Shown here piece after piece: positions 6,940-47,373 of a stretch of 49,733 nt of DNA. The notes under the pieces are model-generated. The model worked only from the letters and a program-made list of their open reading frames with translations. It ran no database searches and had not been told where the DNA came from. The translations under genes and the position numbers were made by a program. Source of the stretch: Bacteroidaceae bacterium (GTDB lineage: Bacteria; Bacteroidota; Bacteroidia; Bacteroidales; Bacteroidaceae); the NCBI GenBank assembly GCA_017961145.1, contig JAGCXU010000139.1:1-49733 (forward strand). Direction: 5' to 3'. Numbering within the stretch: the first letter of the stretch is position 1; each line of letters opens with the position of its first letter.

Positions 6940-9912
6940 ATGACAAGTAAGTTTTTGGCGAGTATTTGCCTGTTTTGCTTTTGCAGTAGTGCGATGGCGA
7001 TGGGTGAGATAAAGCAGGTGCCGTTTACTGATGTACAGGTGAACGACCAGTTTTGGAAGCAGCGTTTGGATGTAATGCGCAATACAACTATTCGCTATGC
7101 CTTCCAAAAAGTGTCGGATGCTGGGCAGATTCGTAACTTCGAGTATGCAGGCATGATTGTGAGCGGACAGAAACAAGTTGGTGATTTGACATTCCAGTCA
7201 GGTCAGCCCTACGACGATGCCGAGGTGTATAAGGTGCTGGAAGGTGCTTCGTATGTACTGACAACACAAGCCAACGCAAGCCTCGAGGAGTATTGTGATG
7301 GCGTTATTGATAAGATATGTTCTGCTCAAGAGCCTGATGGTTACCTCCAGACTAACTTCACGATTCACAATCCCTTGCATCCGTGGTATAATGGCGAGAA
7401 GTGGAAAAGCGATTGGAACCTTTCGCACGAGACGTTCAATGTGGGTGAACTCGTGGAAGCAGGCATTGCATACTACATGGCAACAGGCAAGGACAAGTTG
7501 CTCAATTGTGCAAAAAGAGCTGCCGACAACATGTTGGATGTCTTCAACGAAGATGGTATCAAGATGGCTCCAGGTCATGCTGTGGTCGAGATGGCTTTAG
7601 TGCGCCTTTATGAATTGACGCGAGAGGAACGTTACCTGCAGGGTTGCAAGTTCTTCCTCGATTGCAGAGGCATCCGCAAGTTCGACCCAAATAGCTATGA
7701 CCAGCGTGTTAATGGCAAGTATTGGCAAGACCATTTGCCTGCCATTGAGCAACGAACTGCCGAGGGACATGCTGTTCGCGCAATGTACTTCTACAGTGGT
7801 ATGGCCGATTGGGTGCGTTATAGTGGAGACCAAGCTTATGAAACGGCTGTTACTGCGATATGGAACAATATTGCGAGCAAGAAGTTTTACATCACTGGTG
7901 GCTTTGGTGCTCGCGATAATAACGAGTCTTTCGGTGAGGATTACGAGTTGCCTAATGCATCGGCTTATTGCGAGACCTGTGCTTCCGTTGCTGGCAGTAT
8001 GTTCAATTTGCGAATGTTCCGTTTGCATGGAGAGGGAAAATATATCGATATGCTGGAACGTGCATTATATAATACTGTCTTGGATGGTTACGGCATAGCA
8101 GGCAAGACCTTCTACTATCCGAATCGTCTGTCTTCGAGTGAAAGAGGTGACCCAAGATCTGAATGGTTTGGCACGAGTTGTTGCCCCACTAACCTCTGCC
8201 GCCTTATTCCTTCGGTGCCTGGATATATTTACGCGACAGACGACGATGCTCTCTACTGGAACTTATTTGTTGCTAGCACGGCAAAGGCGACTGTTGGAGA
8301 CGCTGCGTTTGGCATAACTGTCACAGGATCTTATCCTTACAAAGGGGATATGAAGTTAACATTTAATAGTGTTGAAGGTGATGCGACTGGCAAAAAGTTG
8401 AAAGTTCGCATCCCTGGTTGGGCAGTAAATAAGCCTGTGGAGAGCGACCTCTACTCATATACGAATCCGACTACAACACCTGTCGTCATCAAGGTGAATG
8501 GCGAGGAAGTTGACTATACAGTTCAGGATGGTTTTGCCATCTTGCAAAAAGATTGGCAAGTAGATGATTATGTGGAAATCTCGCTTCCGATGGATATCCA
8601 TCAGGTCGTTTCGAACGAGAATCTGAAGAGTAACGAAGGGTTGCGTGCTTATGAGCGTGGGCCATTGGTGTATTGTGCAGAAGGCATAGATAATGGTGGC
8701 AAACTCAATAACTTGTACATCGAAGATGGTGCGACAGGAACTTCTGCCGTTGCTCCATCTTCTTTGACATCCCTCTTCAAAGGCGGCATTCAGAGGCTTC
8801 GAATGAATGGTATGTCTTGCAGTTTGAATGGTGAAGATGTTGTGACGACCAGCAAAGTCATCTCTCTTCTCCCTTATTTTGCCAGAGCCCATCGTGCTGC
8901 ATCACCTATGCTTGTATGGATACCGACGGATGCAAGCAAGATGGAACGTCCGATTGACTTCTTTGACGAAGTGAAGATTTGCAATAGTGCTAGCGAATCT
9001 GCCCACAACTTGCAGGGCCAGAACATGAATACAGGACCAGATCTTGGATGGCGTGATGCTTATGGAGGCTGGATTAGTTACGACCTAAAGGTTGACTCTG
9101 GGCGTCCTATGGATTTCATTACGAAGCAATGGGGCAGTGATGGAGGCAATCGCAAGTACGACATCTATTGCGATGGAACAGTCTTCTCCTACGACGAACT
9201 CAATAACTTCATGCCAGGTGAGTACTACTATATGCGTCATCCCATTCCCTTCGAACTGACGAAAGGCAAGGAGAAAGTGACGATAAAGATGCAGGCTATT
9301 AACTCTCAGAATACCGTTGGAGGCGTCTTTGGCATATATACTGCTTTGTCTGAGGAAGTGCCAGAAGAAACTTCGCCAGTTGATTATTTCTGGACAACAC
9401 AATCATCTTCAAGAACCAGCCATCGCTATACAAGCAATGGAGGTCGTGGCACTTTCAGAGGCAGGACCTGGCTCGACGGTTCAGGCACAACCGGCCAGAA
9501 GTGGACGATGAAGGTAAACAAGACGAACCGCAATTATCTGATGCTTCTGTATTGGGGCGATGAAGGTGATGTGCGCAACTTCAACATTCTTTGTGATGGC
9601 GTTCTGGTTGGTTCGGAAAGCCTCTATCACAACGATCCTGGACGCTTCATCATGCGTTGTTATCCGATTCCGGAAGAAGCTACGAGCGGAAAGGAAACCG
9701 TTCAAATACACCTTACTTCTCCAACAGGAACTAGGACTGGTGGTTTCTACTACGCCTATATGATGTCGTCGAATGAAGATGCGACAGGAGTTCGCGTTCC
9801 GAAATCTCTTGAAAAAGGAAAGGATTGGGGGATCTTCAATCTTCAAGGAATACGCCTTCAAGAGCCACAATCGGGCATCTGTATTGTTGATGGAAAAAAG
9901 ATAGCGTATTAA
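6940..9912 (+). CDS. Beta-L-arabinofuranosidase, GH127 family, secreted
   Basis: 990 residues; signal peptide 1-20 (…CFCSSAMA). Residues ~25-660 match the GH127 (former DUF1680) fold: QVNDQFWKQRLD near the N-terminus, then YCETCAS at 343-349 and SCCPTN at 413-418. E345, C347, C414 and C415 correspond to the Glu and three Cys that bind zinc and include the Cys nucleophile in the characterised family member HypBA1. The enzyme removes beta-L-arabinofuranose, as found on extensin and some pectic side chains. Two related beta-domains follow (about 700-802 and 840-943), then the shared C-terminal tail (FNLQGIRLQ...GICIVDGKK). It has its own promoter. Its stop codon lies inside the first unit of a 22-bp repeat array. 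Confidence 0.93.
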   Translation: MTSKFLASICLFCFCSSAMAMGEIKQVPFTDVQVNDQFWKQRLDVMRNTTIRYAFQKVSDAGQIRNFEYAGMIVSGQKQVGDLTFQSGQPYDDAEVYKVLEGASYVLTTQANASLEEYCDGVIDKICSAQEPDGYLQTNFTIHNPLHPWYNGEKWKSDWNLSHETFNVGELVEAGIAYYMATGKDKLLNCAKRAADNMLDVFNEDGIKMAPGHAVVEMALVRLYELTREERYLQGCKFFLDCRGIRKFDPNSYDQRVNGKYWQDHLPAIEQRTAEGHAVRAMYFYSGMADWVRYSGDQAYETAVTAIWNNIASKKFYITGGFGARDNNESFGEDYELPNASAYCETCASVAGSMFNLRMFRLHGEGKYIDMLERALYNTVLDGYGIAGKTFYYPNRLSSSERGDPRSEWFGTSCCPTNLCRLIPSVPGYIYATDDDALYWNLFVASTAKATVGDAAFGITVTGSYPYKGDMKLTFNSVEGDATGKKLKVRIPGWAVNKPVESDLYSYTNPTTTPVVIKVNGEEVDYTVQDGFAILQKDWQVDDYVEISLPMDIHQVVSNENLKSNEGLRAYERGPLVYCAEGIDNGGKLNNLYIEDGATGTSAVAPSSLTSLFKGGIQRLRMNGMSCSLNGEDVVTTSKVISLLPYFARAHRAASPMLVWIPTDASKMERPIDFFDEVKICNSASESAHNLQGQNMNTGPDLGWRDAYGGWISYDLKVDSGRPMDFITKQWGSDGGNRKYDIYCDGTVFSYDELNNFMPGEYYYMRHPIPFELTKGKEKVTIKMQAINSQNTVGGVFGIYTALSEEVPEETSPVDYFWTTQSSSRTSHRYTSNGGRGTFRGRTWLDGSGTTGQKWTMKVNKTNRNYLMLLYWGDEGDVRNFNILCDGVLVGSESLYHNDPGRFIMRCYPIPEEATSGKETVQIHLTSPTGTRTGGFYYAYMMSSNEDATGVRVPKSLEKGKDWGIFNLQGIRLQEPQSGICIVDGKKIAY

Positions 9913-10014
9913 GTTTGCCAACGACGCACGTTAAGTTTGCAATCGTGGCACGTTATGTTTGCAATCATAACACTTTACGTTTGCAATTTAACCACGCCTA
10001 GTTTCGCAACGAGG
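9905..10014 (+). repeat. 22-bp repeat array A (5 units)
   Basis: Five consecutive 22-base units start at 9905, 9927, 9949, 9971 and 9993. Units 2-4 share CAC(G/T)TTA(A/T/C)GTTTGCAA, and each is close to a palindrome centred on TTGCAA. There are no spacers. Unit 1 covers the last two sense codons and the TAA of the GH127 gene. The array lies between convergent genes, just before a bidirectional terminator. Confidence 0.85.
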
Positions 10015-10021
10015 TTAACAT

Positions 10022-10063
10022 AAAAAAGGCTCCCTTCACATTTCGGAAGAGAGCCTTTCGTTT
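10022..10063. terminator. Bidirectional terminator between GH127 and the galactose operon
   Basis: AAGGCTC with inner CTT pairs with GGAA...GAGCCTT across an 8-base loop. On the minus strand the stem is followed by TTTTTT, ending the galM-to-symporter operon. On the plus strand it is followed by a weaker TTTCGTTT. Confidence 0.8.
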
Positions 10064-10069
10064 AATCGT

Positions 10070-11761
10070 TTACCAGAAGTAGATGTAGAATGCTAAGGTA
10101 ATGCAGACAATAATGACGGTATGGATAACATCCCAGCGGTTCCAGCTTGCTCGTGTGACTGCAATTTGCTCTGGAGTAGAGGTGCCGAACACAAGTCCCT
10201 GAATCTTCTTCTCATCGGGAGCCTTGGTAATAAGGGAAACAACGATGATAACTAAGCTGCAGAATACAAGCATCGCACCGCAGAAGAACAGCCAGTTGAA
10301 GTCGTAGAACACAGCCTTGAACCACGAGTCGGCAGCATCAGTAGCATTACTGTAATACACCTTTGCACCAAGACGCGTCAATCCTATGATAATGCCAGAG
10401 AGCAAGCCCCACATGCCACCTTTGGCAGAAGCACGTTTCCAAGTTATGCCCAACAAGAATGCTGCAGCAATTCCAGGAGCAAGTACTGACTGAACGTCCT
10501 GCAGATAGTTGTAAAGCACATTGCCTACACTTCGCATGATGGGAATCCATAAGATGCCGAGAATCACGATGACGACGGTTGCTATCTGACCGATGCGAAC
10601 CAAACTCTTCTCGGAAGTCTGGGGCTTCAGGCGCTTCCAGAAGTCAATCGTGAAGAGCATAGCCGAAGAGTTGAACAGCGAAGCAAGCGAAGACATCAAG
10701 GCAGCAAGAATACCGCAAACCACCAGTCCTTTTACGCCAGCAGGCAATATCTTAGCCACAAGGGTAGGGAAGGCTGCATCGGCATTTGGTGTTCCGTCTG
10801 GCAACAAAGGCAGGAATACAGGACCAGCCCCAAGACTCTTCTGATGCAGAGCCAAAGCAATCATTCCCGGAATCAGGAACAAGAACACAGGCAACAGCTT
10901 CAGATAAGCTCCAAAGATGGTACCACGGCGACTCTCCCTCTCGTTCTTGCCCGATAAGACACGCTGCACGATATACTGGTCAGTACACCAATACCAGAAG
11001 CCAATGACGGAGGAACCAATCAAGACGCCCAACCACGGATACTGCGGGTCGTGAAGGTCGCGCATCAGGTCGTTCATGTCATCGCCATATATATTGACTG
11101 ATTTCAGTTCTGTTATAGCCATCATGTCGTCCCAGCCGCCAAGAGCCTTCAGGCCGAGCACCAGTATGATGGCCGAGCCAAGCAGCAAGATGGGGGTTTG
11201 AAGCACGGAAGTATAAAGCACGGACTTCATGCCTCCCAAGATGGTATAAAGGGCTGTGATGAGCACAAGGCCAATGGCTGCAATCCAGAAGAAGTCGATA
11301 CCCCATAATTCCTTGATGCCGAAAACCTGCTGGAAGACAAGTCCGCCAGCATAAACCGTTACGGCTACTTTTGTCAACACATAACTGATAAGCGATATAA
11401 CGCTCAAGATGGTTCGACTTTGTGTGTTGTAACGACGTTCGAGGAACTCGGGCATAGTGTAAACCATTGAACGTGAGTAGAATGGCACAAATACCCATCC
11501 AAGTATCAATATCATCCATCCCTGAATCTCCCAATGCGCCATAGCCATACCAGAGGAAGCTCCTGCACCAGCCAGTCCTATGAGATGTTCCGAACCGATG
11601 TTCGAGGCGAAGATGCTTGCACCAATGGCTATCCATGTTGCATCCTTACCGCCTAGAAAATAGTCTGCCGAGTTGTTGTTCTTCTGCGAAACAACCCAAA
11701 TCACTATGCCAATCAGCGCACAACAGAAAACGCCAATGACAATCCAGTCTAATAATGCCAT
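10070..11761 (-). CDS. Sodium/solute symporter (SSS family), probable galactose-type
   Basis: 563 residues, almost entirely hydrophobic, with about 14 membrane segments by eye. Typical SSS features are seen: an N-terminal helix, then SADYFLGGKDATWIAIGAS, ASNIGSEHLIGLAGAG, a QGW segment, and YTILGGMKSVLYTSVLQ. These resemble the Na+/galactose symporter vSGLT group. It is the last gene of an operon with galM, an MFS sugar transporter and galK, so sodium-driven uptake of galactose (or arabinose or glucose) is the natural reading; the substrate is inferred from context. A 12-bp stem-loop sits 20 bases upstream of its ATG, and a terminator follows its stop. Confidence 0.85.
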   Translation of the reverse strand: MALLDWIVIGVFCCALIGIVIWVVSQKNNNSADYFLGGKDATWIAIGASIFASNIGSEHLIGLAGAGASSGMAMAHWEIQGWMILILGWVFVPFYSRSMVYTMPEFLERRYNTQSRTILSVISLISYVLTKVAVTVYAGGLVFQQVFGIKELWGIDFFWIAAIGLVLITALYTILGGMKSVLYTSVLQTPILLLGSAIILVLGLKALGGWDDMMAITELKSVNIYGDDMNDLMRDLHDPQYPWLGVLIGSSVIGFWYWCTDQYIVQRVLSGKNERESRRGTIFGAYLKLLPVFLFLIPGMIALALHQKSLGAGPVFLPLLPDGTPNADAAFPTLVAKILPAGVKGLVVCGILAALMSSLASLFNSSAMLFTIDFWKRLKPQTSEKSLVRIGQIATVVIVILGILWIPIMRSVGNVLYNYLQDVQSVLAPGIAAAFLLGITWKRASAKGGMWGLLSGIIIGLTRLGAKVYYSNATDAADSWFKAVFYDFNWLFFCGAMLVFCSLVIIVVSLITKAPDEKKIQGLVFGTSTPEQIAVTRASWNRWDVIHTVIIVCITLAFYIYFW

Positions 11762-11780
11762 GTTATTTTACCATTAAAGA

Positions 11781-11807
11781 GGAGCCCCAGACTATGTCCA
11801 GGACTCC
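11781..11807 (-). other. Intercistronic stem-loop between galK and the symporter gene
   Basis: Read on the minus strand, 12 bases (11807-11796) pair with 11792-11781 at every position, including three or four G-U pairs, around a 3-base AUA loop. No T-run follows directly, so it looks more like an RNA stability, processing or attenuation element than a full terminator. It ends 20 bases before the symporter ATG. Confidence 0.65.
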
Positions 11808-11830
11808 AATAGTTTAAGGAAATTGTGTGA

Positions 11831-12991: not shown

Positions 12992-13012
12992 AATGTTATA
13001 AAAGTTTAAGTG

Positions 13013-14302: not shown

Positions 14303-14356
14303 AATGATTTAGATTTAATTTATAATGATTAATTAATTTATCAAATATGTGTGTTC

Positions 14357-15686: not shown

Positions 15687-15774
15687 GCTGTTATAATGCC
15701 CAATTTAACGTGCCTAAATCGCAAACGTAACGTACCATGTTGGTGAATATCACACGTTATGTTTTTGATGTAAA
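15687..15774 (-). repeat. 22-bp repeat array B (4 degenerate units)
   Basis: Four units in register start at 15687, 15709, 15731 and 15753. They are easier to read on the minus strand, as TACGTTACGTTTGCGATTTA followed by CACGTTAAATTGGGCATTAT. Compared with arrays A and D the units are diverged, but the 22-base spacing is intact. Confidence 0.65.
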
Positions 15775-15899: not shown

Positions 15900-16499
15900 T
15901 CAATTTGAGTCACATACCAACTCGACTACGGCCTCCACTTCTTCCTGGAGTGTCATCTGGCTTGTGTCGAGGCTGAGGTCGGGATGTGTGGGGGCTTCGA
16001 AGGGTGCGCTAATGCCTGTGAAGTCCTTCACTTCTCCGCGACGGGCACGGGCATAGAGGCCTTTTACATCGCGGCGCTCGCACTCGCTGAGGGGTGTGGC
16101 AATATAGACCTCGCGGAAGTCATTCTCGCCAATAATCTCGCGAGCCATTTCTCTCAGTTCCGTTGTGGGAGAGACGAAGCAGGCGATGGTGACGATGCCT
16201 GTGTCGACGAAGAGCTTGCCTATCTCTGCAATGCGACGGATGTTTTCGCGCCTGTCCTCTTCCGAGAAACCAAGGTTCGAGTTGATGCCGGCACGAATGT
16301 TATCTCCGTCGAGAATGCGACAAAGGATGCCACGCTTGTGTAGTTCGCGCTCCACACCAATTGCAACAGTGCTCTTGCCGCTACCGCTCAAGCCTGTCAT
16401 CCAAATCATGATGCCCCGTTGATGTAGCAGTTGCTCTTTGTCCTGACGCGAAAGCATCTTGTCGAAGATAGGATAGATGGTATCTATTTTAGAGTTCAT
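15900..16499 (-). CDS. cysC: Adenylylsulfate (APS) kinase
   Basis: 199 residues. It phosphorylates APS to PAPS, the activated sulfate used for assimilation or sulfotransfer. Seen: the Walker A loop GLSGSGKST near residue 36, the LDGDNIRAGINSNLGFSEEDRRENIRR segment, FVSPTTELREMAR, and the DVKGLYARARRGEVKDFTGI region, all typical of CysC. It is the last gene of the operon tex - radA - SLC13 permease - cysC. Its ATG lies in a 14-base tandem duplication, and no Shine-Dalgarno sequence is visible. The usual partners cysD and cysN (sulfate adenylyltransferase) are not adjacent. Confidence 0.93.
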   Translation of the reverse strand: MNSKIDTIYPIFDKMLSRQDKEQLLHQRGIMIWMTGLSGSGKSTVAIGVERELHKRGILCRILDGDNIRAGINSNLGFSEEDRRENIRRIAEIGKLFVDTGIVTIACFVSPTTELREMAREIIGENDFREVYIATPLSECERRDVKGLYARARRGEVKDFTGISAPFEAPTHPDLSLDTSQMTLQEEVEAVVELVCDSN

Positions 16500-16522
16500 A
16501 GTTAATAGTTCATAGTTAATAG
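16495..16522. repeat. Exact 14-base tandem duplication at the cysC start
   Basis: TTCATAGTTAATAG occurs twice in tandem (16495-16508 and 16509-16522) and fills the gap between the SLC13 stop and the cysC ATG. The duplication creates a second, out-of-frame ATG 14 bases upstream. Confidence 0.85.
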
Positions 16523-16523
16523 T

Positions 16524-18083
16524 TTAGCGGATGGGCCATATCATTGGAATCACAAATACGCTGATGACGAAGACGATGATATTGAGGGGCAGGCCAACTT
16601 TGACGTAATCCGTGAATCGATAGCCGCCGATACCTTGCACAAGCAGATTCGTCTGATAGCCAATCGGTGTGCTAAAGGCTGCGCTGGCGGCCACACAGAT
16701 GCAGATGAAGAAAGGCATCGGGTCGACTCCCAACTTCTCTGCTACGGCTAGTGCCAGGGGGAAGGAGAGGGCGGCTGCTGCGTTGTTCGTGATGAGTTCG
16801 GTGAAGAGATTTGTGATGATGAACAGGATGGCCAGCATCGCGTAAGGACCATGCTCCGTCTGACCGATGATGTCGGCACAGGCAATGATGATATCTGCAA
16901 TCTGGTCGGCAAATCCCGAGTTTTGCATGCCTTTCGAGATGGCAAAGGCACAGGCTATTGTGACGAGCACATCCCAACTGATGTATTTGCTATACCTCCT
17001 CGGATTGAATATCTTTGCCCAAGCCATGATGACGGTCGTCACACAAACAAAAAAGAACATGTCGAACTTGAACCCAGGCACGGCTTCCCTGACGAAAGGC
17101 AACTCGCCAACGGTGGCTCCGACTATCATCAGGACTAGCAGAACGAGGGCAAGATAGCGCTTCTTGTGGTCGAGGGGCTGATTGTCTGCATCATAGCTGG
17201 AGATGAGGAACGAGGTCGTTTCCTGATAGGTTTGCACAAACTTCTCGTCGGCATCGAGCAGCAGGGCATCGTGGTTTTGCATGGGCATGTTCATCCAGTC
17301 ACCGCTAAGCAGCGTACCTCCTCGGCGGATGCTCCGAACGGTTGCCCCATACTGGCGGTAGAAGTCGAACTCGCGAAGTGTCTTTCCCAATCCGTTGAAA
17401 CGGCTTCGCAGCACTATTTCCACGCGATGAACGCCTTCGGCCTTCTCGTCGTCCTCTGTTTCGCTTTCGCGCGAGTCGGGCAGCAGATAATGGCTATAGA
17501 AAATGAGGTAGCAAAGTCCGACCAGACAGATGATGATGCCAACCTTACCCAACTCAAACATACTCATTCCCTCCCTGCCGGATTCTTGAATGAGGCCGTC
17601 CACAACGAGGTTGGTGCTCGTGCCAATCAGGGTGCAAATGCCACCAAGAACTGTGGCATAACTCAGAGGAATGAGGAACTTTGTGTGCGACAGGCCGACC
17701 TTCCGCGCCCAATTCTTGATGATGGGAGCAAAGATGACAACTACTGGCGTATTGTTCAAGAAGGCGGAGAGCGCTGCTATGGTTGGAAGCAGTTTTGCAT
17801 TTGCTTTTGTTACCGTCGTCTGCTTTTGAGGCAAAAGGTTCAAAATGATGCGCTCCAGAATGCCACTTCTTCTTACGCCTTCGCTGACGAGGAAGAGCAG
17901 AGCAACGGTTATCATTCCCTTGTTCGAGAAGCCTTCCAAGCACTCCTTCGGTTGCAAAATTCCTGCACAAAGCATCATGACTACGCAACTGAACAGGATG
18001 AGTCCAGGCTTCAATCTGTCTGCTATGAGTGCCCACACCATGAACACCAAGCAAAAGGCTACAAATAATACACTAAATTCCAT
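16524..18083 (-). CDS. SLC13/DASS-type permease, probable sulfate transporter
   Basis: 519 residues with two halves of membrane helices, each holding a hairpin motif. The first contains SAFLNNTPVVVIFAPI and IGTSTNLVVDG; the second ITNLFTELITNNAAAALSFP and SAAFSTPIGYQTNLLV. A soluble stretch between them (about 205-300) carries TrkA-C-like sequence (VEIVLRSRFNGLGKTLREF). This is the layout of SLC13-like anion permeases. Followed by cysC 24 bp later, sulfate import is the likely role (inference). Its ATG shares one base with the stop of radA. Confidence 0.85.
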   Translation of the reverse strand: MEFSVLFVAFCLVFMVWALIADRLKPGLILFSCVVMMLCAGILQPKECLEGFSNKGMITVALLFLVSEGVRRSGILERIILNLLPQKQTTVTKANAKLLPTIAALSAFLNNTPVVVIFAPIIKNWARKVGLSHTKFLIPLSYATVLGGICTLIGTSTNLVVDGLIQESGREGMSMFELGKVGIIICLVGLCYLIFYSHYLLPDSRESETEDDEKAEGVHRVEIVLRSRFNGLGKTLREFDFYRQYGATVRSIRRGGTLLSGDWMNMPMQNHDALLLDADEKFVQTYQETTSFLISSYDADNQPLDHKKRYLALVLLVLMIVGATVGELPFVREAVPGFKFDMFFFVCVTTVIMAWAKIFNPRRYSKYISWDVLVTIACAFAISKGMQNSGFADQIADIIIACADIIGQTEHGPYAMLAILFIITNLFTELITNNAAAALSFPLALAVAEKLGVDPMPFFICICVAASAAFSTPIGYQTNLLVQGIGGYRFTDYVKVGLPLNIIVFVISVFVIPMIWPIR

Positions 18084-21790: not shown

Positions 21791-21900
21791 GCAAGGTAGT
21801 TTGCAATCATAACACGTTACGTTTGCAATCATAACACGTTACGTTTGTCATTTACACTGGCTTTGTAAAGCATAGGAACACGCCTAAATCGCCACTTTTT
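21791..21900 (+). repeat. 22-bp repeat array D (5 units, central pair nearly identical)
   Basis: Units start at 21791, 21813, 21835, 21857 and 21879. The second and third carry CACGTTACGTTTG, and GTTTGCAATCATAA recurs in the first two. The fourth unit is decayed, yet the fifth (CACGCCTAAATCGCC) is back exactly in register and resembles units in arrays A and B. Confidence 0.8.
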
Positions 21901-21990: not shown

Positions 21991-22064
21991 TGACTCCGGA
22001 GGGATTCTAACCCTCGACCTTCAGAACCGGAATCTGACGCTCTATACAGCTAAGCTACGGAGCC
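21991..22064 (-). tRNA. tRNA-Arg (anticodon CCG)
   Basis: Read on the minus strand, 74 bases fold as a cloverleaf. The 7-bp acceptor stem is GGCTCCG / CGGAGTC with one G-U pair. The anticodon stem TCAGA / TCTGA carries the loop TTCCGGT, so the anticodon is CCG. The T stem is GAGGG / CCCTC with loop TTAGAAT, and the discriminator base is A. CCA is not encoded. It begins 6 bases after the stop of the DUF3127 gene and may be co-transcribed with it. Confidence 0.93.
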
Positions 22065-22509: not shown

Positions 22510-22523
22510 CAAAGAAAAATGTA

Positions 22524-22551
22524 GAATGAAGAATTAAGAATGAAGAATTAT
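22524..22551. repeat. 14-base tandem repeat in the DUF3127-dnaN divergent region
   Basis: GAATGAAGAATTA occurs twice with a 14-base period (22524 and 22538). It has the same period as the duplication at the cysC start, but a different sequence. Confidence 0.75.
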
Positions 22552-28748: not shown

Positions 28749-28858
28749 GGCAGTGAAGTTGGCAAACATATAGTGCCACGATTGCATTTATATAGTGTTA
28801 CGATTGCAATCATATAGTGTTACGTTTGGCATCATGGCGTGTGATGTTGGGAAACGCA
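28749..28858 (-). repeat. 22-bp repeat array C (5 units)
   Basis: Units in register start at 28749, 28771, 28793, 28815 and 28837. Read on the minus strand the middle three begin CACTATATGATTGCAATCG, CACTATATAAATGCAATCG and CACTATATGTTTGCC. The array lies between the divergent uvrB and 28960 genes. Its minus-strand right flank, CTCGAGTCAT at 28736-28727, matches the flank of array F. Confidence 0.8.
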
Positions 28859-28959: not shown

Positions 28960-29787
28960 ATGAAAGAAGAGAAGAAAACTGCAAAAAAGAAAGCGACAAA
29001 GAAGGTCGCAAAGAAGCTTGAAAGCATTCTCGACCTGAATTCCAATAACATTTGGGACTTGGACGAGTTCGCAATTGCTGAAGCCTGGGAAAGAGCAAGA
29101 AAAGAGGAGGATTTCAGTATCAGCGAGTTAAAGCTTCTCAACACCATCAGACTTGCTTTCGAGGTGGTACACTATAATCCTGAAGACGAGCGTGAAACTC
29201 AGAAATATGAGAATGGAGGTTGGGCAAAATTGACTCATTGCCACGAAGAAAAGGGCTGTGTGGCTATTCGCAGAAAAGCAATCGAACGCATCACAGACCT
29301 CAGCTACGAGAACATCAGACACATCTCGACAGCTATGCTTCTGGAGCTTATCGACCGCAACTTTGGTGGTGGTTGGGACGCCATTGCCCTTGCCATTCGA
29401 GACATTATCGAGACAGGTTTCGAGATAAGCACAACACAACTTCCTGCTAGTCGCATTCACGCTCCAGGCGGAACTGTGGAGAAGAAGGTGGCACAAGGCT
29501 TCGATGTTCTGGAGATACCTAAAGGAACTTGGATAGAAGCCATCTTCGCAAAGAAGAAAGACCCAGTTGAGAAGATTCACATGGATTTGCCAGAAAGGGA
29601 ATATGATGAAGATGGAAATCCCATTCCACTTCCCGATGATCTGGACAACTCTGACGAAAACGAGGACGATTCCCTCGAAAATGATGATACTTACTTCAGC
29701 AGTCTCACTCCTGAAGCTGACGTAAAAGACCTCGAAGAGGAAGGCCTATCGATAGAAGATGTCAGCGAAAGCGACGAAGAAGAATAG
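28960..29787 (+). CDS. Unrecognised protein with histone-H1-like N-terminus and acidic C-terminus
   Basis: 275 residues; family not recognised. Residues 3-23 are almost only Lys, Ala and Thr (KKTAKKKATKKVAKKLES), as in the tails of bacterial H1-like proteins. A folded middle of about 170 residues follows: WDLDEFAIAEAWERARKEEDFSISELKLLNTIRLAFEV, CHEEKGCVAIRRKAIERI and NFGGGWDAIALAIRDIIETGFE. The last ~65 residues are strongly acidic (DEDGNPIPLPDD...SDENEDD...SESDEEE). There is no signal peptide or membrane segment, so it is cytoplasmic. The promoter is clear, and the stop is one base from the stop of the convergent methyltransferase gene. A nucleic-acid or chromatin role is a guess from composition only. 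Confidence 0.75.
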   Translation: MKEEKKTAKKKATKKVAKKLESILDLNSNNIWDLDEFAIAEAWERARKEEDFSISELKLLNTIRLAFEVVHYNPEDERETQKYENGGWAKLTHCHEEKGCVAIRRKAIERITDLSYENIRHISTAMLLELIDRNFGGGWDAIALAIRDIIETGFEISTTQLPASRIHAPGGTVEKKVAQGFDVLEIPKGTWIEAIFAKKKDPVEKIHMDLPEREYDEDGNPIPLPDDLDNSDENEDDSLENDDTYFSSLTPEADVKDLEEEGLSIEDVSESDEEE

Positions 29788-34808: not shown

Positions 34809-36355
34809 ACAGACTTCCCATATTTCTCCTTGGCAGTTGTGCCTTCAATGCCGCTCATGCTCAGCGATGGAACATCGTTTACATAATGAGCGACGACCAT
34901 TCTTATCAAGCCATTAGTGCTTATGGTCATCAACTTAGCAAGCAAGCTCCAACTCCAAACCTTGACCGTCTTGCTGAACGAGGAATGCTTTTCCGCCGTG
35001 CTTATGTAGAGAACTCGTTAAGCACACCCAGTCGTGCATGCTTGATGACTGGCATGTATAGCCATCAAAGCGGTCAAAGAACGCTTGACTGCCCTATTGA
35101 TGAGAATGCGCCATTCGTTAGTGAATACTTGCAACAAGCAGGTTATCAGACAGGTATGATTGGGAAATGGCATATGCTTTGCGAGCCTAAAGGCTTCGAC
35201 ACTTATCAAGTTCTTCCTGGTCAAGGCGACTATTATGACCCAAGATTCCGCTCGAAGGAGTCAGGTGGCAAGTATGTAGTTGAGAAAGGTTATGCCACAA
35301 ATCTTATCACGGACCACGCCATTCAGTTCCTCGAGGAGCGCGATAGGACGAAACCTTTTGCACTCTTCGTCCATCATAAAGCGCCCCATCGCAACTGGAT
35401 GCCACCTCTCGATATGCTTGAACTTTATGAAGATGTAGAGTTTCCTTTGCCTGAAACTTTCTATGACGACTATTCAACGAGAGGTAGAGCTGCTCATGAG
35501 CAACAGATGAGCATAGCGAAAGACATGGAAATGTGCTACGACCTGAAGGTCACACAGATAAAGCCTGGCATGGGTTATACGCACGAACGAAACGGCAACG
35601 GCTTTCGTAATCAACTTTCTCGCATGTCGACAGAACAAAGGGAAAAGTGGGAATCCGTCTATAACCCTCGTAACGAGGAAATGCTTTCCCAACATCTTAG
35701 CGGAAACGACCTTCTGAAGTGGAAATTTCAACGTTACATTCGCGACTATATGCGCGTCATTCATAGTATAGATGAACAGGTTGGTCGCTTGCTTGATTAC
35801 CTTGAAGCAAACGATTTGATGGATAATACCCTCGTTGTTTACACGAGTGATCAGGGGTTTTATATGGGCGAACATGGATGGTTCGACAAGCGTTTCATGT
35901 ATGAAGAGTCGTTTCGCACTCCCCTACTCGTCTGTGCTCCAGGCATGAAGGGTGGTCAGGAGAGTGACGCTCTCGTTCAAAACATCGACTTTGCACCAAC
36001 CTTCCTCGACATTGCCGATACAGAAAAACCGCAGCAAATGGTTGGAACTTCGTTGCTACCTATCATCTCTCAAGACGGAAAAACACCCAAGAACTGGCGT
36101 AAATATTTGTACTATCACTACTATGATTGTCCTGCAGAACACAATGTGATGCGTCACGATGGCGTTAGCGACGGCCGATATAAGCTCATACACTTCTATG
36201 GAGCGAAGGATTCGTATGACGAACTCTTCGATCTTAAGAAAGATCCGAATGAGCTCCACAACGTCATTTCGGAAAAGAAGTATGCCAAACATCTGGCTCG
36301 TTTGCAGAAGCAATTGGACACTTTCCGCTTTGAACAGAAAGTTGACGAATGGTAA
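34805..36355 (+). CDS. Secreted type I sulfatase (formylglycine, Ser-type)
   Basis: 516 residues from the ATG at 34805, which gives a signal peptide (MNRLPIFLLGSCAFNAAHAQ). Upstream frame sequence overlaps the previous gene and is rejected. Seen: metal-binding MSDDHSYQAISAYG near the mature N-terminus, the active-site motif STPSRACLMTG (S-x-P-x-R, so the formylglycine would come from Ser via an anSME-type maturase), GMIGKWHM, and TSDQGFYMGEHGWFDKR. It removes sulfate esters from glycans in the periplasm; the sugar is unknown. No maturase is in the window. The stop codon falls in the first unit of repeat array E. Confidence 0.93.
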   Translation: MNRLPIFLLGSCAFNAAHAQRWNIVYIMSDDHSYQAISAYGHQLSKQAPTPNLDRLAERGMLFRRAYVENSLSTPSRACLMTGMYSHQSGQRTLDCPIDENAPFVSEYLQQAGYQTGMIGKWHMLCEPKGFDTYQVLPGQGDYYDPRFRSKESGGKYVVEKGYATNLITDHAIQFLEERDRTKPFALFVHHKAPHRNWMPPLDMLELYEDVEFPLPETFYDDYSTRGRAAHEQQMSIAKDMEMCYDLKVTQIKPGMGYTHERNGNGFRNQLSRMSTEQREKWESVYNPRNEEMLSQHLSGNDLLKWKFQRYIRDYMRVIHSIDEQVGRLLDYLEANDLMDNTLVVYTSDQGFYMGEHGWFDKRFMYEESFRTPLLVCAPGMKGGQESDALVQNIDFAPTFLDIADTEKPQQMVGTSLLPIISQDGKTPKNWRKYLYYHYYDCPAEHNVMRHDGVSDGRYKLIHFYGAKDSYDELFDLKKDPNELHNVISEKKYAKHLARLQKQLDTFRFEQKVDEW

Positions 36356-36457
36356 GCTTGAAAACGTGGCACAGTTAAATCGCAAACGTGGCACGTGAAG
36401 TTGCCCAACGTCACGTTTGATGTTTGCAATCATCAAACGTGATGTTTGCAATCATCA
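36348..36457. repeat. 22-bp repeat array E (5 units)
   Basis: Units in register start at 36348, 36370, 36392, 36414 and 36436. The last two carry GATGTTTGCAATCATCA. The first two read better on the minus strand (ACGTTTGCGATTTAACTG), so orientation is mixed, as expected for near-palindromic units. Unit 1 contains the sulfatase TAA. Confidence 0.75.
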
Positions 36458-39135: not shown

Positions 39136-39137
39136 CT

Positions 39138-40301: not shown

Positions 40302-40335
40302 CGTTATATGTGTGGTATTTCTTGATTCTACATGT

Positions 40336-41616: not shown

Positions 41617-41624
41617 AACGTCTG

Positions 41625-41632
41625 CAAATATA
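41625..41632 (-). promoter_or_regulatory. TAnnTTTG box of rarA
   Basis: TATATTTG on the minus strand, 8 bases before the rarA ATG. Confidence 0.65.
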
Positions 41633-41694
41633 CAAAAAAATATCGAGGAAAAAGAATAATGACTTAAGAAAATGCGTCAACTCACAAAACAACC

Positions 41695-41804
41695 CACAGT
41701 TAAGTTCAAAACATAACACTATACGTTTGCAATCGTAACACTTTATGTTGGCCAACTTAACACTTTACGTTTGCGATTTAACTACGCCATGTTTTCCGTC
41801 TCGA
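41695..41804 (+). repeat. 22-bp repeat array F (5 units)
   Basis: Units in register start at 41695, 41717, 41739, 41761 and 41783. Unit 4 (CACTTTACGTTTGCGATTTA) is almost identical to unit 4 of array A, and the following unit starts (T/C)ACGCC in both. The array sits between divergent promoters and is not next to any stop codon. Confidence 0.85.
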
Positions 41805-41894
41805 CTCGAGTCATCTCAATGACCTATATCAATAAATAATGTACGCGCGAAGAGAATATTGCAAACATATTGTGGTTAAATGAATAATTTTCCG

Positions 41895-41902
41895 TATCTT
41901 TG
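41895..41902 (+). promoter_or_regulatory. TAnnTTTG box of fabD
   Basis: TATCTTTG 35 bases before the fabD ATG. Confidence 0.65.
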
Positions 41903-41937
41903 CAGCCCGAAAGAAGTAAAACAAAACCAAAATAGAC

Positions 41938-42837: not shown

Positions 42838-42838
42838 T

Positions 42839-44476
42839 ATGACCATCTATCAGGTCTTTACCCGCCTCTTCGGAAACGATAAGGCTAGCTGCATTCCTTT
42901 CGGAACAAGGCAGGAGAACGGGTGTGGCCTGATGCAAGACTTTACAGCCAAGGCTTTGGAGCAGATCCGAGCACTTGGCTGTACTCATATCTGGTATACA
43001 GGAATCATCGAACATGCTAGCAAAACGGATTATTCTGGCATAGGTATTCCTGTCGATAACCCAGATGTAGTAAAGGGCGAGGCTGGCAGTCCTTATGCAA
43101 TTCGCGACTATTATGATGTTGATCCTGACCTTGCGAAAGACCCTCAAAAGCGCTTACACGAGTTCGAACTTTTGGTAGAGCGGACACACAAGGCGGGTTT
43201 GAAGGTCATCATCGACTTCGTGCCCAATCATGTTGCCCGCCAATATCACTCGGATGCAAAGCCTGAAGGTGTTCGCGATCTTGGTGAAGACGACGACAAA
43301 ACCTGCTCCTTCTCACCCCAAAACAACTTCTATTACCTTCCTGCAGAACAGTTGCATCTCGACAACATCCTGCAGAAAAGTACCTACAAAGAGGCTCCTG
43401 CAAAGGCTACGGGCAATGACAACTTTACTTCTTGGCCATCGAAAAACGATTGGTACGAAACTGTGAAGCTCAACTACGGCATTGATTATCTTGGAGGCAG
43501 GCAAGGTCATTTCTCCCCCACTCCAGATACGTGGCATAAGATGCTGCAGATCCTTCTCTATTGGGCCTCGAAAGGTATCGACGGATTCCGTTGCGATATG
43601 GCTGAGATGGTGCCTGTCGAATTCTGGGAATGGGCGTTGCCTCAGGTAAAAAAGGCTTTCCCAAACATCATCTTCATTGCCGAAGTATACAATCCGAACC
43701 TTTATCGCGACTACATTCATCGAGGGAAATTCGATTATCTCTACGATAAAGTCGGGCTTTACGACACGCTTCTGAATGTTTGTCGAGGTGCAAGCACGCA
43801 CAATATCATAGCCTGTTGGCAAGCGGTTGACGACTTTCGAAGCCAGATGCTCAACTTCCTCGAGAACCACGATGAACAGCGACTTGCAAGCGATTTCCTG
43901 CTTGGTGATGCAAGAAGGGCTTTGCCGGTACTTCTCGTCAGCAGCCTGATGCCCTCCCCATTCATGCTCTATTTCGGGCAGGAACTTGGCGAGCGAGGTA
44001 TGGATGCAGAAGGTTTCAGCGGTCGAGACGGGAGAACCACGATTTTCGACTATTGGAGCGTGCCCACCATTCGACGTTGGCGAAACAAAGGTCGCTTTGA
44101 TGGGAAACTGCTGACGGCAGACGAGTTGTCTCTAAGAGAGACTTATCAAACCATACTGAACCTTCGAGAGCAAGGACTCTATGCAGATGGAGGCTTCTAC
44201 GACCTGATGTATGCGAATCCACATCTCCAGCGACAGTATGCCTTCATCCGTCACAAAGGAAAGAAGTTTGCACTCATCATAGCCAACTTCTCCGATAAAG
44301 AAGAAACGATTTACCTCAATATCCCCAAGCATTTCTTTGAGTTTGCAGGCGTTAAAGAAAAGGAAAAGGTTTCAATGTGTAATGCTCTGGTTAACAATAA
44401 GCTGACCATTTCATTTAATTCTCAAACGCCTATCGAGCTCACGCTCCCTGCCAACTTCGGAATCATCCTGTGTTAA
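42839..44476 (+). CDS. Alpha-amylase family glycosidase (GH13), cytoplasmic
   Basis: 545 residues from the ATG at 42839 (MTIYQVFTRLFGNDK), one base after fabD. Upstream frame sequence lies inside fabD. No signal peptide is present, so it acts in the cytoplasm, probably on malto-oligosaccharides or stored glucan. GH13 conserved regions are seen in order: VIIDFVPNHVAR (I), GFRCDMAEM with the nucleophile Asp (II), IFIAEVYNP with the acid/base Glu (III) and FLENHDEQR with the transition-state Asp (IV). Exact product specificity cannot be read. Its last two codons and TAA lie inside the first unit of repeat array G. Confidence 0.92.
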   Translation: MTIYQVFTRLFGNDKASCIPFGTRQENGCGLMQDFTAKALEQIRALGCTHIWYTGIIEHASKTDYSGIGIPVDNPDVVKGEAGSPYAIRDYYDVDPDLAKDPQKRLHEFELLVERTHKAGLKVIIDFVPNHVARQYHSDAKPEGVRDLGEDDDKTCSFSPQNNFYYLPAEQLHLDNILQKSTYKEAPAKATGNDNFTSWPSKNDWYETVKLNYGIDYLGGRQGHFSPTPDTWHKMLQILLYWASKGIDGFRCDMAEMVPVEFWEWALPQVKKAFPNIIFIAEVYNPNLYRDYIHRGKFDYLYDKVGLYDTLLNVCRGASTHNIIACWQAVDDFRSQMLNFLENHDEQRLASDFLLGDARRALPVLLVSSLMPSPFMLYFGQELGERGMDAEGFSGRDGRTTIFDYWSVPTIRRWRNKGRFDGKLLTADELSLRETYQTILNLREQGLYADGGFYDLMYANPHLQRQYAFIRHKGKKFALIIANFSDKEETIYLNIPKHFFEFAGVKEKEKVSMCNALVNNKLTISFNSQTPIELTLPANFGIILC

Positions 44477-44554
44477 GTTGGCAAACTTCACGTGTGAAAT
44501 TTCCAAATTACACGTGTTAAGTTTGGCATTTTCACGTGTGATGTTTTCAAACCA
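44467..44554 (+). repeat. 22-bp repeat array G (4 units)
   Basis: Units start at 44467, 44489, 44511 and 44533. Units 2-4 all begin CACGTGT(G/T). Unit 1 contains the TAA of the GH13 gene at exactly the offset where unit 3 also has TAA. Confidence 0.8.
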
Positions 44555-44558
44555 CATT

Positions 44559-44575
44559 AGTCTCGACGACTTTTT
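44559..44575 (+). terminator. Weak terminator candidate after the GH13 gene
   Basis: A short 4-bp stem AGTC / GACT is followed by TTTTT. It is too short to be convincing alone, but no better terminator is present before the GH27 promoter. Confidence 0.3.
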
Positions 44576-44587
44576 CCTCTCTTTTTC

Positions 44588-44618
44588 TTTGTTCGGAAAG
44601 GATAAATTGTTAACTTTG
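44588..44618 (+). promoter_or_regulatory. Promoter of the GH27 gene
   Basis: TTTG (44588-44591), a 19-bp gap and TAACTTTG (44611-44618), 20 bases before the ATG. This matches the Bacteroidetes -33/-7 consensus spacing. Confidence 0.75.
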
Positions 44619-44638
44619 TAGGCAAAAATAAACAACAG

Positions 44639-47302
44639 ATGAAACATTTTCTCTTATCTGCAAGCCTATTCCTTGTCCATGCTCTTTGCGTGCATGCACA
44701 AGTCGAGACTCCTACGATGGGATGGAGTTCGTGGAATACTTTTTCGGTGAATATCTCGGAAGACATCATAAAGGGGCAGGCCGATGCGATGGTCTCACAA
44801 GGCTTGAAGGATGCTGGCTACCAATATATCAACATCGACGACGGTTTCCAGTATGGCCGCACGGCACAAGGAAAAGTTCGCATTCACCCGCAGCGTTTCC
44901 CTCATGGACTGAAGGTTGTGAGCGACTACATTCACTCCAAAGGCCTTAAGGCAGGCATCTACAGCGATGCAGGCGATTGTACTTGCGGCAGTATCAGTAA
45001 CGGAGACACGAGAAACACGAATGTCGGTTTCTATGGCTACGAGCAAGTGGATGCCGACTACTACTTCAAAGAGCTTGAGTTCGACTTCATCAAGGTCGAT
45101 TATTGCGGGGGAAACCACGCCGGACTGAACGAGCAGGAACAATACACGGCGATACATAATGCTATTGTTAACACAGGAAAAGATGTGCGCTACAACCTTT
45201 GCCGATGGGCTTATCCAGGTACTTGGTGCCATGACATCTCGACATCTTGGCGAACGACGGGTGATATCTACGACGGTTGGGCGTCCGTGAAGGGCATTCT
45301 TGCCGAGAATCTCTATCTGTCGGCCTATTGCTATGATGGTTGTTACAACGATATGGACATGCTGGAAGTCGGGCGTTCCATGTCGGAAGAAGAGGATAAG
45401 ACGCACTTCGGAATGTGGTGCATCATGTCGAGTCCCCTGCTTATCGGATGCAACATGGCAACCATCAAGGAGCGTCCATTAGCGCTCTTGAAGAACCCGG
45501 AACTCATTGCTCTGAACCAAGACCCGTTAGGTTTGCAAGCTTATGTCGTGCAACATATAGGCGAGACATACGTTCTTGCGAAAGACATACTGCCCCTGCA
45601 CGGCAATACACGAGCGGTGGCGCTCTACAATCCTTCAGATAGAGAGGAAGAGATGTGCATCAGTTTTAGCGAAGTTGACTTGGGAGGTCGGGTGCAAGTG
45701 CGTGATTTGTTTGAGCATCAGGACTTAGGAGAGATGGAAGGTGGCCTGTCTGTCCTCGTTCCACCTCATGCTACGCGTATCTACAAACTGCAGGCTGAAA
45801 CGCGACTGGAACGTTATATCTATGAAGCCGAGACTGCCTTTCTGCACGATTATCAAGAGATATACAACAATCAATCGCTTGGGACGGCCATTTATGAAAC
45901 AAACTCATCGGCTAGCGGTGGCGCCTCAGTAGGCTGGTTGGGCGGAAAGCGTAGCAACTCACTGCTTTGGAAAGATGTCTATGTAATAGAGGAAGCCGAC
46001 TATACGGTGCATTTCAGCGTTGCCTCTAGCGAAACCCGCGCTTTCACCGTCTTGTTGAATGGCGAGGAGGTGGGGACTATTAACGCCATGACCAACGGCT
46101 GGGGCACCTTCAAGGAGTACACTATGACGCTCCACCTCAGTGCAGGTTCCAATACCATCGAGATGTATAACGAAAGCGGATGGATGCCGAATGTGGACTA
46201 TATGAGCCTCGAGAAAGTTGGTGAGAACACCATCAATACCCGCCGATTGGAAGAGATAAGAATGCAGCTTTCAGTCATGGCAAACAACAACCAACTGACC
46301 GACCGCTTGCATCAGGACATAGAAAAACTGCTCCAACGAGCAATGTCAAACTCGCTCTCAAACAGTCAGATAACGTCTCTCATCAGCGAGGTCAAGACCA
46401 TGCAAAACACCATCAGTCAGATCCTGCCACTCCTCGAAGAATACCGATTCTGGAGAGAGTATGCGGAAAAGAACGTGAATGCAAGCCTCGAATCATCTGC
46501 ACTCAACACATTCATCTCGAAGTTAACGAGATGCGACGGCACTCTTTCCAGAGCCAACACACAGAGTCAGGTGGACAGCGCCCTGAGTTCTTTGAAGTCG
46601 GCTATTACGACGTATCTGAAGAACACAAATGCCGTGCCTAAATATGGCGAATATCTCGACATGACGATGTTTGTCGTCAACCCTGACTTCTCTGTGAAAG
46701 AGGGATGGGAAGGCGAGCCAACCTACCGCGATGGATGCGCCGAAGGGTATAACAAAGCGTTCGACATCTACCAGATTCTCTCGAACATGAGGCCAGGAGT
46801 TTACACCGTGATGTGCAATGCTCTGTACAGACCGAAGAGTAACGACGGTGGTGCAGCCTACAGAGCAGGCACGGAGAACATTCAGGCCTACCTTTATGTG
46901 AACGATGAAAAAGTGAAGGTGAAATCGCTTTATTCAGAGGTTTGGCCTGATGCATCACAATATGGTTCGGTAGACAACAGGAATGGCTATCCACACAGCA
47001 TGCGTGCAGCAGGCATTCGCTTTGCCGAGGGATGTTATCAGAACGTGTTGGAGTATACCTTAGATGCAAAGGGAACGCTCAGGTTCGGACTTAAAGCTGA
47101 GACAGGTGGCAACGATAATTGGTGCTGCTTCGACAACTTTGTGCTCTACTACCAAGCAACCCCCGACTTCTACGACGGGATAGAACAGGTGAAATCCTCA
47201 AAGAAAAAGAACGCGAGGACTTATAGTATTCAAGGCTACGAAGTGGATGAAAGCCAGAAAGGCCTCGTTATCCGAAACGGCAAAAAGATACTGAAGAAAT
47301 AA
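44639..47302 (+). CDS. Secreted alpha-galactosidase (GH27) with CBM and jelly-roll modules
   Basis: 887 residues; signal peptide 1-20 (MKHFLLSASLFLVHALCVHA). The GH27 domain (about 22-385) opens with TPTMGWSSWNTF, has INIDDGFQ, the nucleophile region FIKVDYCGG (Asp154) and CYNDMDMLEVG (acid/base Asp240, with Asp238 beside it). It cleaves terminal alpha-galactose from galactomannan or raffinose-type substrates. A CBM35/CBM6-like beta-sandwich lies at about 393-526 (YEAETAFLH...NTIEMYNESGWMPNVDYM). A helical linker (530-660) leads to a jelly-roll module (672-838) closely like those in the 1063 and 4119 genes (WCCFDNFVLYY), then the shared tail (GLVIRNGKKILKK). Confidence 0.93.
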   Translation: MKHFLLSASLFLVHALCVHAQVETPTMGWSSWNTFSVNISEDIIKGQADAMVSQGLKDAGYQYINIDDGFQYGRTAQGKVRIHPQRFPHGLKVVSDYIHSKGLKAGIYSDAGDCTCGSISNGDTRNTNVGFYGYEQVDADYYFKELEFDFIKVDYCGGNHAGLNEQEQYTAIHNAIVNTGKDVRYNLCRWAYPGTWCHDISTSWRTTGDIYDGWASVKGILAENLYLSAYCYDGCYNDMDMLEVGRSMSEEEDKTHFGMWCIMSSPLLIGCNMATIKERPLALLKNPELIALNQDPLGLQAYVVQHIGETYVLAKDILPLHGNTRAVALYNPSDREEEMCISFSEVDLGGRVQVRDLFEHQDLGEMEGGLSVLVPPHATRIYKLQAETRLERYIYEAETAFLHDYQEIYNNQSLGTAIYETNSSASGGASVGWLGGKRSNSLLWKDVYVIEEADYTVHFSVASSETRAFTVLLNGEEVGTINAMTNGWGTFKEYTMTLHLSAGSNTIEMYNESGWMPNVDYMSLEKVGENTINTRRLEEIRMQLSVMANNNQLTDRLHQDIEKLLQRAMSNSLSNSQITSLISEVKTMQNTISQILPLLEEYRFWREYAEKNVNASLESSALNTFISKLTRCDGTLSRANTQSQVDSALSSLKSAITTYLKNTNAVPKYGEYLDMTMFVVNPDFSVKEGWEGEPTYRDGCAEGYNKAFDIYQILSNMRPGVYTVMCNALYRPKSNDGGAAYRAGTENIQAYLYVNDEKVKVKSLYSEVWPDASQYGSVDNRNGYPHSMRAAGIRFAEGCYQNVLEYTLDAKGTLRFGLKAETGGNDNWCCFDNFVLYYQATPDFYDGIEQVKSSKKKNARTYSIQGYEVDESQKGLVIRNGKKILKK

Positions 47303-47307
47303 CGTCA

Positions 47308-47373
47308 CCTGCGAGAATCGAAAACATCACACGTGACGATTGCAAACAGACTCCGTTAAGAACAACAACGCTG
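47308..47373 (-). repeat. 22-bp repeat array H (about 3 units, minus orientation)
   Basis: Units in register start at 47308, 47330 and 47352. On the minus strand it reads TGTTTGCAATCGT then CACGTGTGATGTTTTCG, matching array G. It begins 5 bases after the GH27 stop. Confidence 0.6.

What the first reader, a model, noticed from the sequence alone, without database searches (positions are those of the whole stretch)
9905..47373. Family of intergenic 22-bp tandem arrays of near-palindromic units in strict register
At least eight intergenic sites (A 9905-10014, B 15687-15774, C 28749-28858, D 21791-21900, E 36348-36457, F 41695-41804, G 44467-44554, H 47308-47373) carry 3-5 head-to-tail units of exactly 22 bases. 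The best units contain a 20-base imperfect dyad, GTTAYGWTTGCAAWCRTAAC, plus two linking bases. Sequence drifts strongly between units, yet the 22-base register holds even across decayed units (for example array D unit 4). That suggests selection on spacing of about two helical turns, as for proteins binding one face of DNA. There are no spacers, no cas genes and no coding potential. One array per ~6 kb would mean hundreds per genome. Candidate roles: nucleoid or chromosome-organising sites, cooperative repressor sites, or a REP-like non-autonomous element.
Basis: partly seen in the sequence, partly recalled or inferred. Interest (0 to 1): 0.8.

Follow-up and report, generated by a model that had tools for sequence, protein, structure and literature searches.

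The report
Species-specific 22-bp intergenic palindrome arrays
Gut Bacteroidaceae genomes carry short repeat arrays between genes whose 22-letter spacing recurs from species to species while the repeated sequence itself differs, which looks like landing platforms for an unknown DNA-binding protein.

Summary
Sites A-G are clear; H is a two-unit remnant. The host genome holds 212 near-consensus units against 1 control match; in the 247 kb sampled, neighbouring units lie 22 bp or a multiple apart. This sequence ("type I") is abundant in 9 of 41 same-genus genomes and nearly absent from the other 32 (0-9 matches). Yet many other species carry 22-bp arrays of different, often palindromic units: nine genus genomes gave 83 arrays at period 22 and at most 9 at any other period from 17 to 27. 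Arrays sit between genes, closer to 3' than 5' ends, mostly with 3-5 dyads and sharp ends. Upstream of tex, 12 of 23 genomes compared have an array; three are near shuffled background against the rest. Symmetric positions do not co-vary, the host assembly lacks a REP-type transposase, and no 3-9 bp target duplication or phage/plasmid copy was seen. Best reading: platforms for a dimeric DNA-binding protein, two helical turns per dimer, at transcription-unit boundaries (BIME-like), with lineage-specific sequence. The protein is unidentified. A selfish MITE-like minisatellite (BrickBuilt-like) is the main rival. Eight literature searches found no description of these arrays.

The parts
9905..10014 (.). 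Array A, between convergent genes; dyads at 9908, 9930, 9952, 9974 plus a terminal variant half-unit (ACGCCTAGTTT); the TAA stop codon of the upstream gene lies in the first half-site
15687..15774 (.). Array B, between co-directional genes (adenylylsulphate kinase and aldose epimerase); dyads at 15690, 15712, weaker at 15734, 15756
21791..21900 (.). Array D, between a tRNA gene and tex; dyads at 21794, 21816, 21838; units at 21860 and 21882 do not match. Syntenic site that carries arrays in relatives
28749..28858 (.). Array C, between divergent genes (uvrB and the ORF at 28960+); dyads at 28753, 28775 (weak), 28797, 28819, 28841. The listed uvrB ORF starts inside C; its real start is probably downstream (inference). 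Orthologous array in L069 with closely matching flanks
36348..36457 (.). Array E, between convergent genes; dyads at 36351 and 36373 (weak), 36395, 36417, 36439; begins at the stop codon of the upstream gene; an array of other sequence stands at the same stop codon in L066
41695..41804 (.). Array F, between divergent genes; dyads at 41720, 41742, 41764
44467..44554 (.). Array G, between co-directional genes; dyads at 44472, 44494, 44516, 44538; a half-site supplies the TAA stop codon of the upstream gene
47308..47373 (.). Array H, remnant between convergent genes: two weak dyads (47311, 47333)

Best explanation
Each array is a platform of about four contiguous binding sites for a dimeric, probably oligomerising DNA-binding protein. 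One 22-bp unit is two half-sites facing each other (two helical turns, dyad centres 11 bp apart), so dimers line up on one face of the helix. The platforms stand at transcription-unit boundaries, often close behind stop codons, and probably work as bidirectional insulators or chromatin/topology sites, as proposed for BIMEs. Spacing and, at the sites examined, position are kept; the half-site sequence drifts and is homogenised across a genome, so each lineage has its own dialect, presumably tracked by its binding protein. Shown: arrays, register, dyads, ends, placement, lineage-specific sequence, persistence at two syntenic sites. Inferred: that a protein exists, binds cooperatively, acts at boundaries and co-evolves.
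For: Register: 32 of 32 successive pairs at multiples of 22 with a pattern not taken from lag detection. Period 22 recurs with unrelated sequences: 53 places at lag 22 in 80 tex loci, 12 at 21, 5 at 23, 0-5 at other lags from 10 to 40; 83 arrays in nine genus genomes. Dyads beat 95% of column shuffles in 74 of 130 arrays (about 6.5 expected), and 71 of the 74 centre between bases. Symmetric positions vary independently, as dimer half-sites should. Narrow size: of 33 G000 arrays with at least two dyads, 10 have 3, 11 have 4, 7 have 5. Sharp ends, one variant half-unit beyond the last dyad. Placement: 51 of 159 intergenic gaps of 60 bp or more hold an array; median 27 bp to 3' ends, 104 bp to 5' ends; 15 arrays for 27 convergent gaps, 29 for 93 co-directional, 8 for 39 divergent. 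Same site, other sequence: L056, L065 and L084 score 6.5-8.8 against the other tex-upstream arrays, shuffled mean 7.6; L066 has a GC-rich 22/44-bp array at the stop codon where the window has array E.
Against: No binding protein was found. HU-HIG counts (2-21 in 21 genomes) do not track arrays. The linker is almost always AC or GT (95 of 97 in G000, 25 of 25 in G162, 29 of 38 in G158), an asymmetry that a plain symmetric dimer does not explain. 56 of 130 arrays show no significant dyad. Conservation of array interiors is mixed: in 7 aligned pairs arrays were less conserved than surroundings in 2 (window/L069 69% against 82%, L057/L058 67% against 84%), about equal in 2, more conserved in 3. 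Gaps inside arrays: none in 3 of 7 pairs, 23 in the other 4 (gap to substitution ratio 0.13 in arrays, 0.26 outside, summed over all 7).
Confidence: 0.5

Rival explanations
1. A selfish, MITE-like minisatellite: a short non-autonomous element of tandem 22-bp units with mirrored ends, moved by a transposase acting in trans, tolerated between genes, with different families amplified in different lineages.
For: Mirrored variant end half-sites; A-B-B-A dyad order in 3 of 7 G163 arrays; several unit families in one genome (G162, G110, L065); BrickBuilt in Porphyromonas gingivalis is an intergenic 23-nt minisatellite inside a MITE (PMC4596501).
Against: No 3-9 bp target-duplication signal (2-bp not tested), no near-identical copies (best 88% over 60 bp or more, median 65%, 465 pairs), no match in IMG/VR for three type patterns, none in plasmids for array A or phages for array F. 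Does not explain why unrelated families share 22 bp.
Confidence: 0.3
2. Plain local minisatellites: replication slippage and gene conversion between tandem units make and homogenise them, without function.
For: Signs of within-array homogenisation: window D holds two identical units where L069 has two different ones; position 3/18 agrees along arrays.
Against: One period across unrelated sequences, few two-dyad arrays (2 of 33), similarity between arrays at different loci of one genome (60.5% of 641 same-genome pairs score 10 or more, against 15.1% of 4,964 different-genome different-site pairs and 0.1% of 800 shuffles).
Confidence: 0.1
3. REP/BIME elements spread by a RAYT (Y1) transposase, or RNA hairpins such as terminators or mRNA stabilisers.
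For: Intergenic, palindromic, high copy, bias to 3' ends and away from divergent gaps, as reported for REPs (PMC3733652).
Against: No PF01797 match in the host assembly, though 45 of 60 genomes in that search have one; no complementary changes at dyads; no Rfam match at the arrays at gathering threshold; some arrays lie between divergent genes (C, F).
Confidence: 0.07

Closest known systems
BIME/REP elements (PMC2817692 and PMC3733652, passages read)
   Same: High-copy, intergenic imperfect palindromes in clusters, regularly spaced; proposed chromosome-organisation and termination roles
   Different: REPs are 20-40 bp with GTAG or CGTC tags, often with a RAYT; PMC2817692 reports preserved pairing in variant REPs, suggesting complementary mutations. 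Here a 22-bp head-to-tail period, no complementary changes, no Y1 match in the host assembly
BrickBuilt MITE minisatellite of Porphyromonas gingivalis (PMC4596501, part 1 of 9 and passages read)
   Same: Same order (recalled); intergenic head-to-tail units of about two helical turns (23 nt); mirrored ends
   Different: 19 loci with 1 to 22.8 repeats, leader and tail with TIRs resembling IS ends; here about 200 loci, mostly 3-5 dyads, the end is one variant half-unit, and the period is shared by unrelated families
Plasmid iterons and partition centromeres (recalled)
   Same: Tandem sites about two helical turns apart, bound cooperatively
   Different: Usually one locus per replicon; here about 200 chromosomal loci, and no plasmid match for array A

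Membership tests
REP/BIME with RAYT | Cognate Y1 (RAYT) transposase in the genome | tested here: not met
   0 matches to PF01797 in G000 (86% complete, so absence is not final); 45 of 60 genomes searched match
REP/BIME with RAYT | Stem pairing preserved by complementary changes | tested here: not met
   Matches at symmetric pairs do not exceed shuffled values in G000 except position 3/18, which agrees across both dyads
REP/BIME with RAYT | Extragenic and high copy | tested here: met
MITE (BrickBuilt-like) | Terminal inverted repeats | tested here: inconclusive
   Mirrored variant end half-units; no matching IS was sought
MITE (BrickBuilt-like) | Target-site duplication | tested here: inconclusive
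   Lengths 3-9 over 25 offsets: best mean match 0.40 (G000, 33 arrays), 0.40 (G158, 13), 0.50 (G162, 10); at most 2 exact among the top five settings; no shuffle run, 2-bp not tested
MITE (BrickBuilt-like) | Recently copied, near-identical elements | tested here: not met
   Best of 465 pairs 88% in the 247-kb sample
CRISPR | Unique spacers between repeats | tested here: not met
   Units are contiguous; cas genes were not searched for
Structured RNA family | Match to a described family | tested here: not met
   The only gathering-threshold match in the window is a tRNA at 21991-22064
Binding array of a nucleoid-type protein | A protein that binds it | not testable with these tools
   No binder identified; HU-HIG counts do not track arrays

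The most novel reading that the evidence does not exclude
A bacterial counterpart of the satellite/satellite-binding-protein pair: a clade-wide chromosomal binding-array system in which spacing (22 bp), size (about four dimers) and genomic positions are inherited while the recognition sequence is repeatedly replaced genome-wide, implying a DNA-binding protein that changes specificity between sister species together with about 200 arrays.
Probability: 0.3. Interest if true: 0.92.

Novelty: new variant of a known kind. Interest (0 to 1): 0.76.

Why it matters
Intergenic repeats are usually defined by sequence. Here the shared property is a period (22 bp) and, at the sites examined, a place, so sequence searches miss the class: the host's unit is at control level in 150 family genomes, yet 6 of the 8 same-genus genomes among them show at least one lag-22 place in samples of 35-60 kb. 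It suggests an undescribed chromosome-organising or insulating system in gut Bacteroidaceae, and a tractable case of DNA sites and their binder changing together.

Tried and rejected
REP/RAYT: the host assembly has no PF01797 match. RNA hairpins: no covariation, no Rfam match at arrays. Phage or plasmid origin: no match in IMG/VR for three patterns, in plasmids for array A or in phages for array F; the other arrays were not tried there. HU-HIG proteins as binder: counts do not track arrays. Target-site duplication of 3-9 bp: no signal. A CCCCAG end motif near arrays: 4 against 0.56 expected in G158, but 2 against 1.28 in G000, 1 against 0.42 in G162, 0 against 0.31 in G155, so not general. Indel constraint in orthologous arrays: suggestive only. 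My notebook gives the linker as AC or GT in 97 of 97; one search corrects this to 95 of 97.

Literature: eight searches listed no paper that I recognised as describing these arrays; one search returned no paper at all. Seen of single papers: PMC4596501 part 1 of 9 and passages; PMC5771137 passages; PMC6749651 part 1 of 5 and a term search without a match for 22 bp, Bacteroid, Prevotella or helical; PMC2817692 and PMC3733652 passages; the rest as listings. The library held is open-licence PubMed Central only, no preprints.

Full report
Observation. The eight sites are present at the stated coordinates. A matrix trained on other parts of the genome and one relative scores A-G strongly in 22-bp register and H weakly; no position of the reversed window reaches any of the eight three-unit scores. 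Tandem Repeats Finder lists period 22 at A, C, D, F and G. In the whole 2.61-Mb assembly (window = contig C41) the unit occurs 212 times with up to two mismatches, against 1 control. Successive units lie 22, 44 or 66 bp apart in 32 of 32 cases. In the matrix scan, whose training units came from lag-22 regions, 78 of 78 spacings between 11 and 70 bp are 22 or 44 in G000, 32 of 32 in G158, 22 of 22 in G162 and 12 of 13 in G155, where the control is high (10 against 23 hits). D units 4-5 do not match the unit.

Distribution of the sequence. 150 family genomes, 8 of them same-genus, hold 0-4 matches, like the control; 60 phylum genomes hold 0-5, control 0-7. A two-unit sequence model over 41 same-genus genomes gives 239 matches in the host, 266 in G158, 165 in G162, 148 in G155, 142 in G302, 136 in G291, 131 in G294, 95 in G301, 73 in G169 (62% complete), and 0-9 in the other 32. 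Many places are listed on both strands, strict filters were used and only 150 candidates per genome are shown as scored, so these are relative figures, not locus counts; the model was built from G000, G158 and G162.

The period outlives the sequence. Self-similarity at every lag from 10 to 80, with no unit sequence assumed, in 80 named loci around tex (1.417 Mb): 53 places at lag 22 in 31 of the 80 loci, 30 at 44, 14 at 42, 13 at 66, 12 at 21, at most 5 at each other lag. Lag-22 places per 100 kb: 12.1 window, 7.5 loci with tex at least 84% identical, 1.9 at 68-77%, 2.4 at 61-66%, 2.5 same-genus stretches, 1.5 other genera of the family (5 places), 0.64 order (2), 0.3 class/phylum (1). So the signal is strong in the near clade and thin beyond the family. 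Of eight same-genus genomes sampled blindly, two (G095, G124) showed no lag-22 place. In nine genus genomes the lag test finds 83 arrays at lag 22 (G000 29, G155 6, G158 11, G162 11, G163 7, G165 6, G153 2, G110 4, G010 7) against 9 at lag 21 and 7 at lag 18, the next highest between 17 and 27. These nine were partly chosen after arrays had been seen in them, and some G155, G158 and G162 contigs are also loci. Units include GTTACGTTTGCAATCATAAC (host), GTGTGAAGTTTGCAAAATCGAC (G155), GCTTCATCGCGATGAAGC and GCACATACATGTATGTGC (G163), CTGAGACGGCCGTCTCAG (G165). One array of the G163 kind (TGCATTTACATGTACGTGCAAT) and one of an AGTACCACC kind also occur in the host (L208, L205).

Anatomy. Dyad symmetry beats 95% of column shuffles in 74 of 130 arrays; in 71 of 74 the centre lies between bases. 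An exact period with a dyad has a second dyad 11 bp away, so a unit is two opposed half-sites. Symmetric positions do not co-vary in G000, except position 3/18, which agrees across both dyads and so looks like array-wide homogenisation; in G158 (fewer units) positions at distance 4 and 5 from the linker dyad also exceed shuffles at p 0.011 and 0.019. The linker is AC or GT in 95 of 97 (G000). Sizes are narrow: of 33 G000 arrays with at least two dyads, 2 have 2, 10 have 3, 11 have 4, 7 have 5, 3 have more (8 single hits left out). Beyond the last dyad there is one in-register half-unit of variant sequence (for example GCCATGTTTT in the host, TGGGGTTGTTT in G158), then information drops to background.

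Place. 1 of 29 host arrays lies more than 60% inside a predicted gene, though 91% of the sample is coding (own simple gene caller). In G000, G158 and G162 together, 51 of 159 gaps of 60 bp or more hold an array; the 52 arrays are 15 convergent, 29 co-directional, 8 divergent, for 27, 93 and 39 such gaps. Median distance is 27 bp to 3' ends and 104 bp to 5' ends. Of 29 gene 3' ends near arrays, 8 have their TAA stop at the same position of a half-site. At array E the protein end (VDEW) is the same in L066, so there the array did not truncate the gene.

Turnover at fixed places. Of 23 genomes compared (22 loci with tex at least 84% identical, plus the window), 12 have a detected array within 420 bp upstream of tex; L056, L065 and L084 score 6.5-8.8 against the others (shuffled mean 7.6), the other nine mostly 9-12 among themselves. 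In L066 the stop codon beside which the window has array E is followed by four GC-rich 22-bp units with a 44-bp alternation (lag 44 identity 0.79, lag 22 0.57; 0 of 5,000 shuffles as high). Between the window and L069 the flanks of array C match closely while units 2 and 3 differ at many positions. Over seven aligned tex-upstream pairs the picture is mixed: arrays are less conserved than surroundings in 2, about equal in 2, more conserved in 3. Same-genome pairs of arrays are more alike than same-site pairs from different genomes: 60.5% of 641 against 30.3% of 66, 15.1% of 4,964 otherwise, 0.1% of 800 shuffles (same-genome pairs are mostly G000).

Mechanism. Independent half-sites, dyads on one helix face, narrow size, sharp ends and kept positions fit a multi-dimer protein platform; the 3'-end and convergent bias fits a boundary role like that proposed for BIMEs (PMC2817692 passages). 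The protein, its cooperativity and the boundary role are inferred. Against a mobile element: no 3-9 bp duplication signal and no near-identical pairs, no phage or plasmid match for what was tried. For it: mirrored ends, several families per genome, and the BrickBuilt precedent (PMC4596501). RAYT-driven REP is disfavoured.

Limits. MAG data, host 86% complete; host sample enriched for arrays (33 of 212 pattern sites in 9.4% of the genome); own gene caller; arrays below the lag threshold are missed, as the L066 one was; nothing tested at the bench.

Noticed in passing
L127:3009-21829: Five lag-22 arrays in one 22-kb locus of a distant Bacteroidales MAG, of several sequences (for example AACGCCGCGACCCTGAAAAGGA).
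   Followed up: no
L065:15780-15992; L125:15739-15911: A 22-bp array directly followed by a 21-bp array of another sequence; 21- and 23-bp arrays are a minority class in the clade.
   Followed up: no
L232:8900-8991, L232:16355-16445, L233:19419-19514 (genome G163): Arrays with dyad order A-B-B-A: two different palindromes in one array, same 22-bp register.
   Followed up: partly
L110: Record titled Roseburia sp. NALB_7823_13 carries a tex gene 64% identical to this Bacteroidaceae one: probably a mislabelled or contaminated MAG contig.
   Followed up: no
window 21991-22064 (-): tRNA gene between dnaN and array D; the order tRNA - array - tex recurs in L061, and L063 has the tRNA-like stretch without an array.
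   Followed up: no
window 16493-16524 and 22514-22550: Short heptamer-type tandem repeats (AGTTAAT, GAAGAAT), not part of the 22-bp arrays.
   Followed up: no
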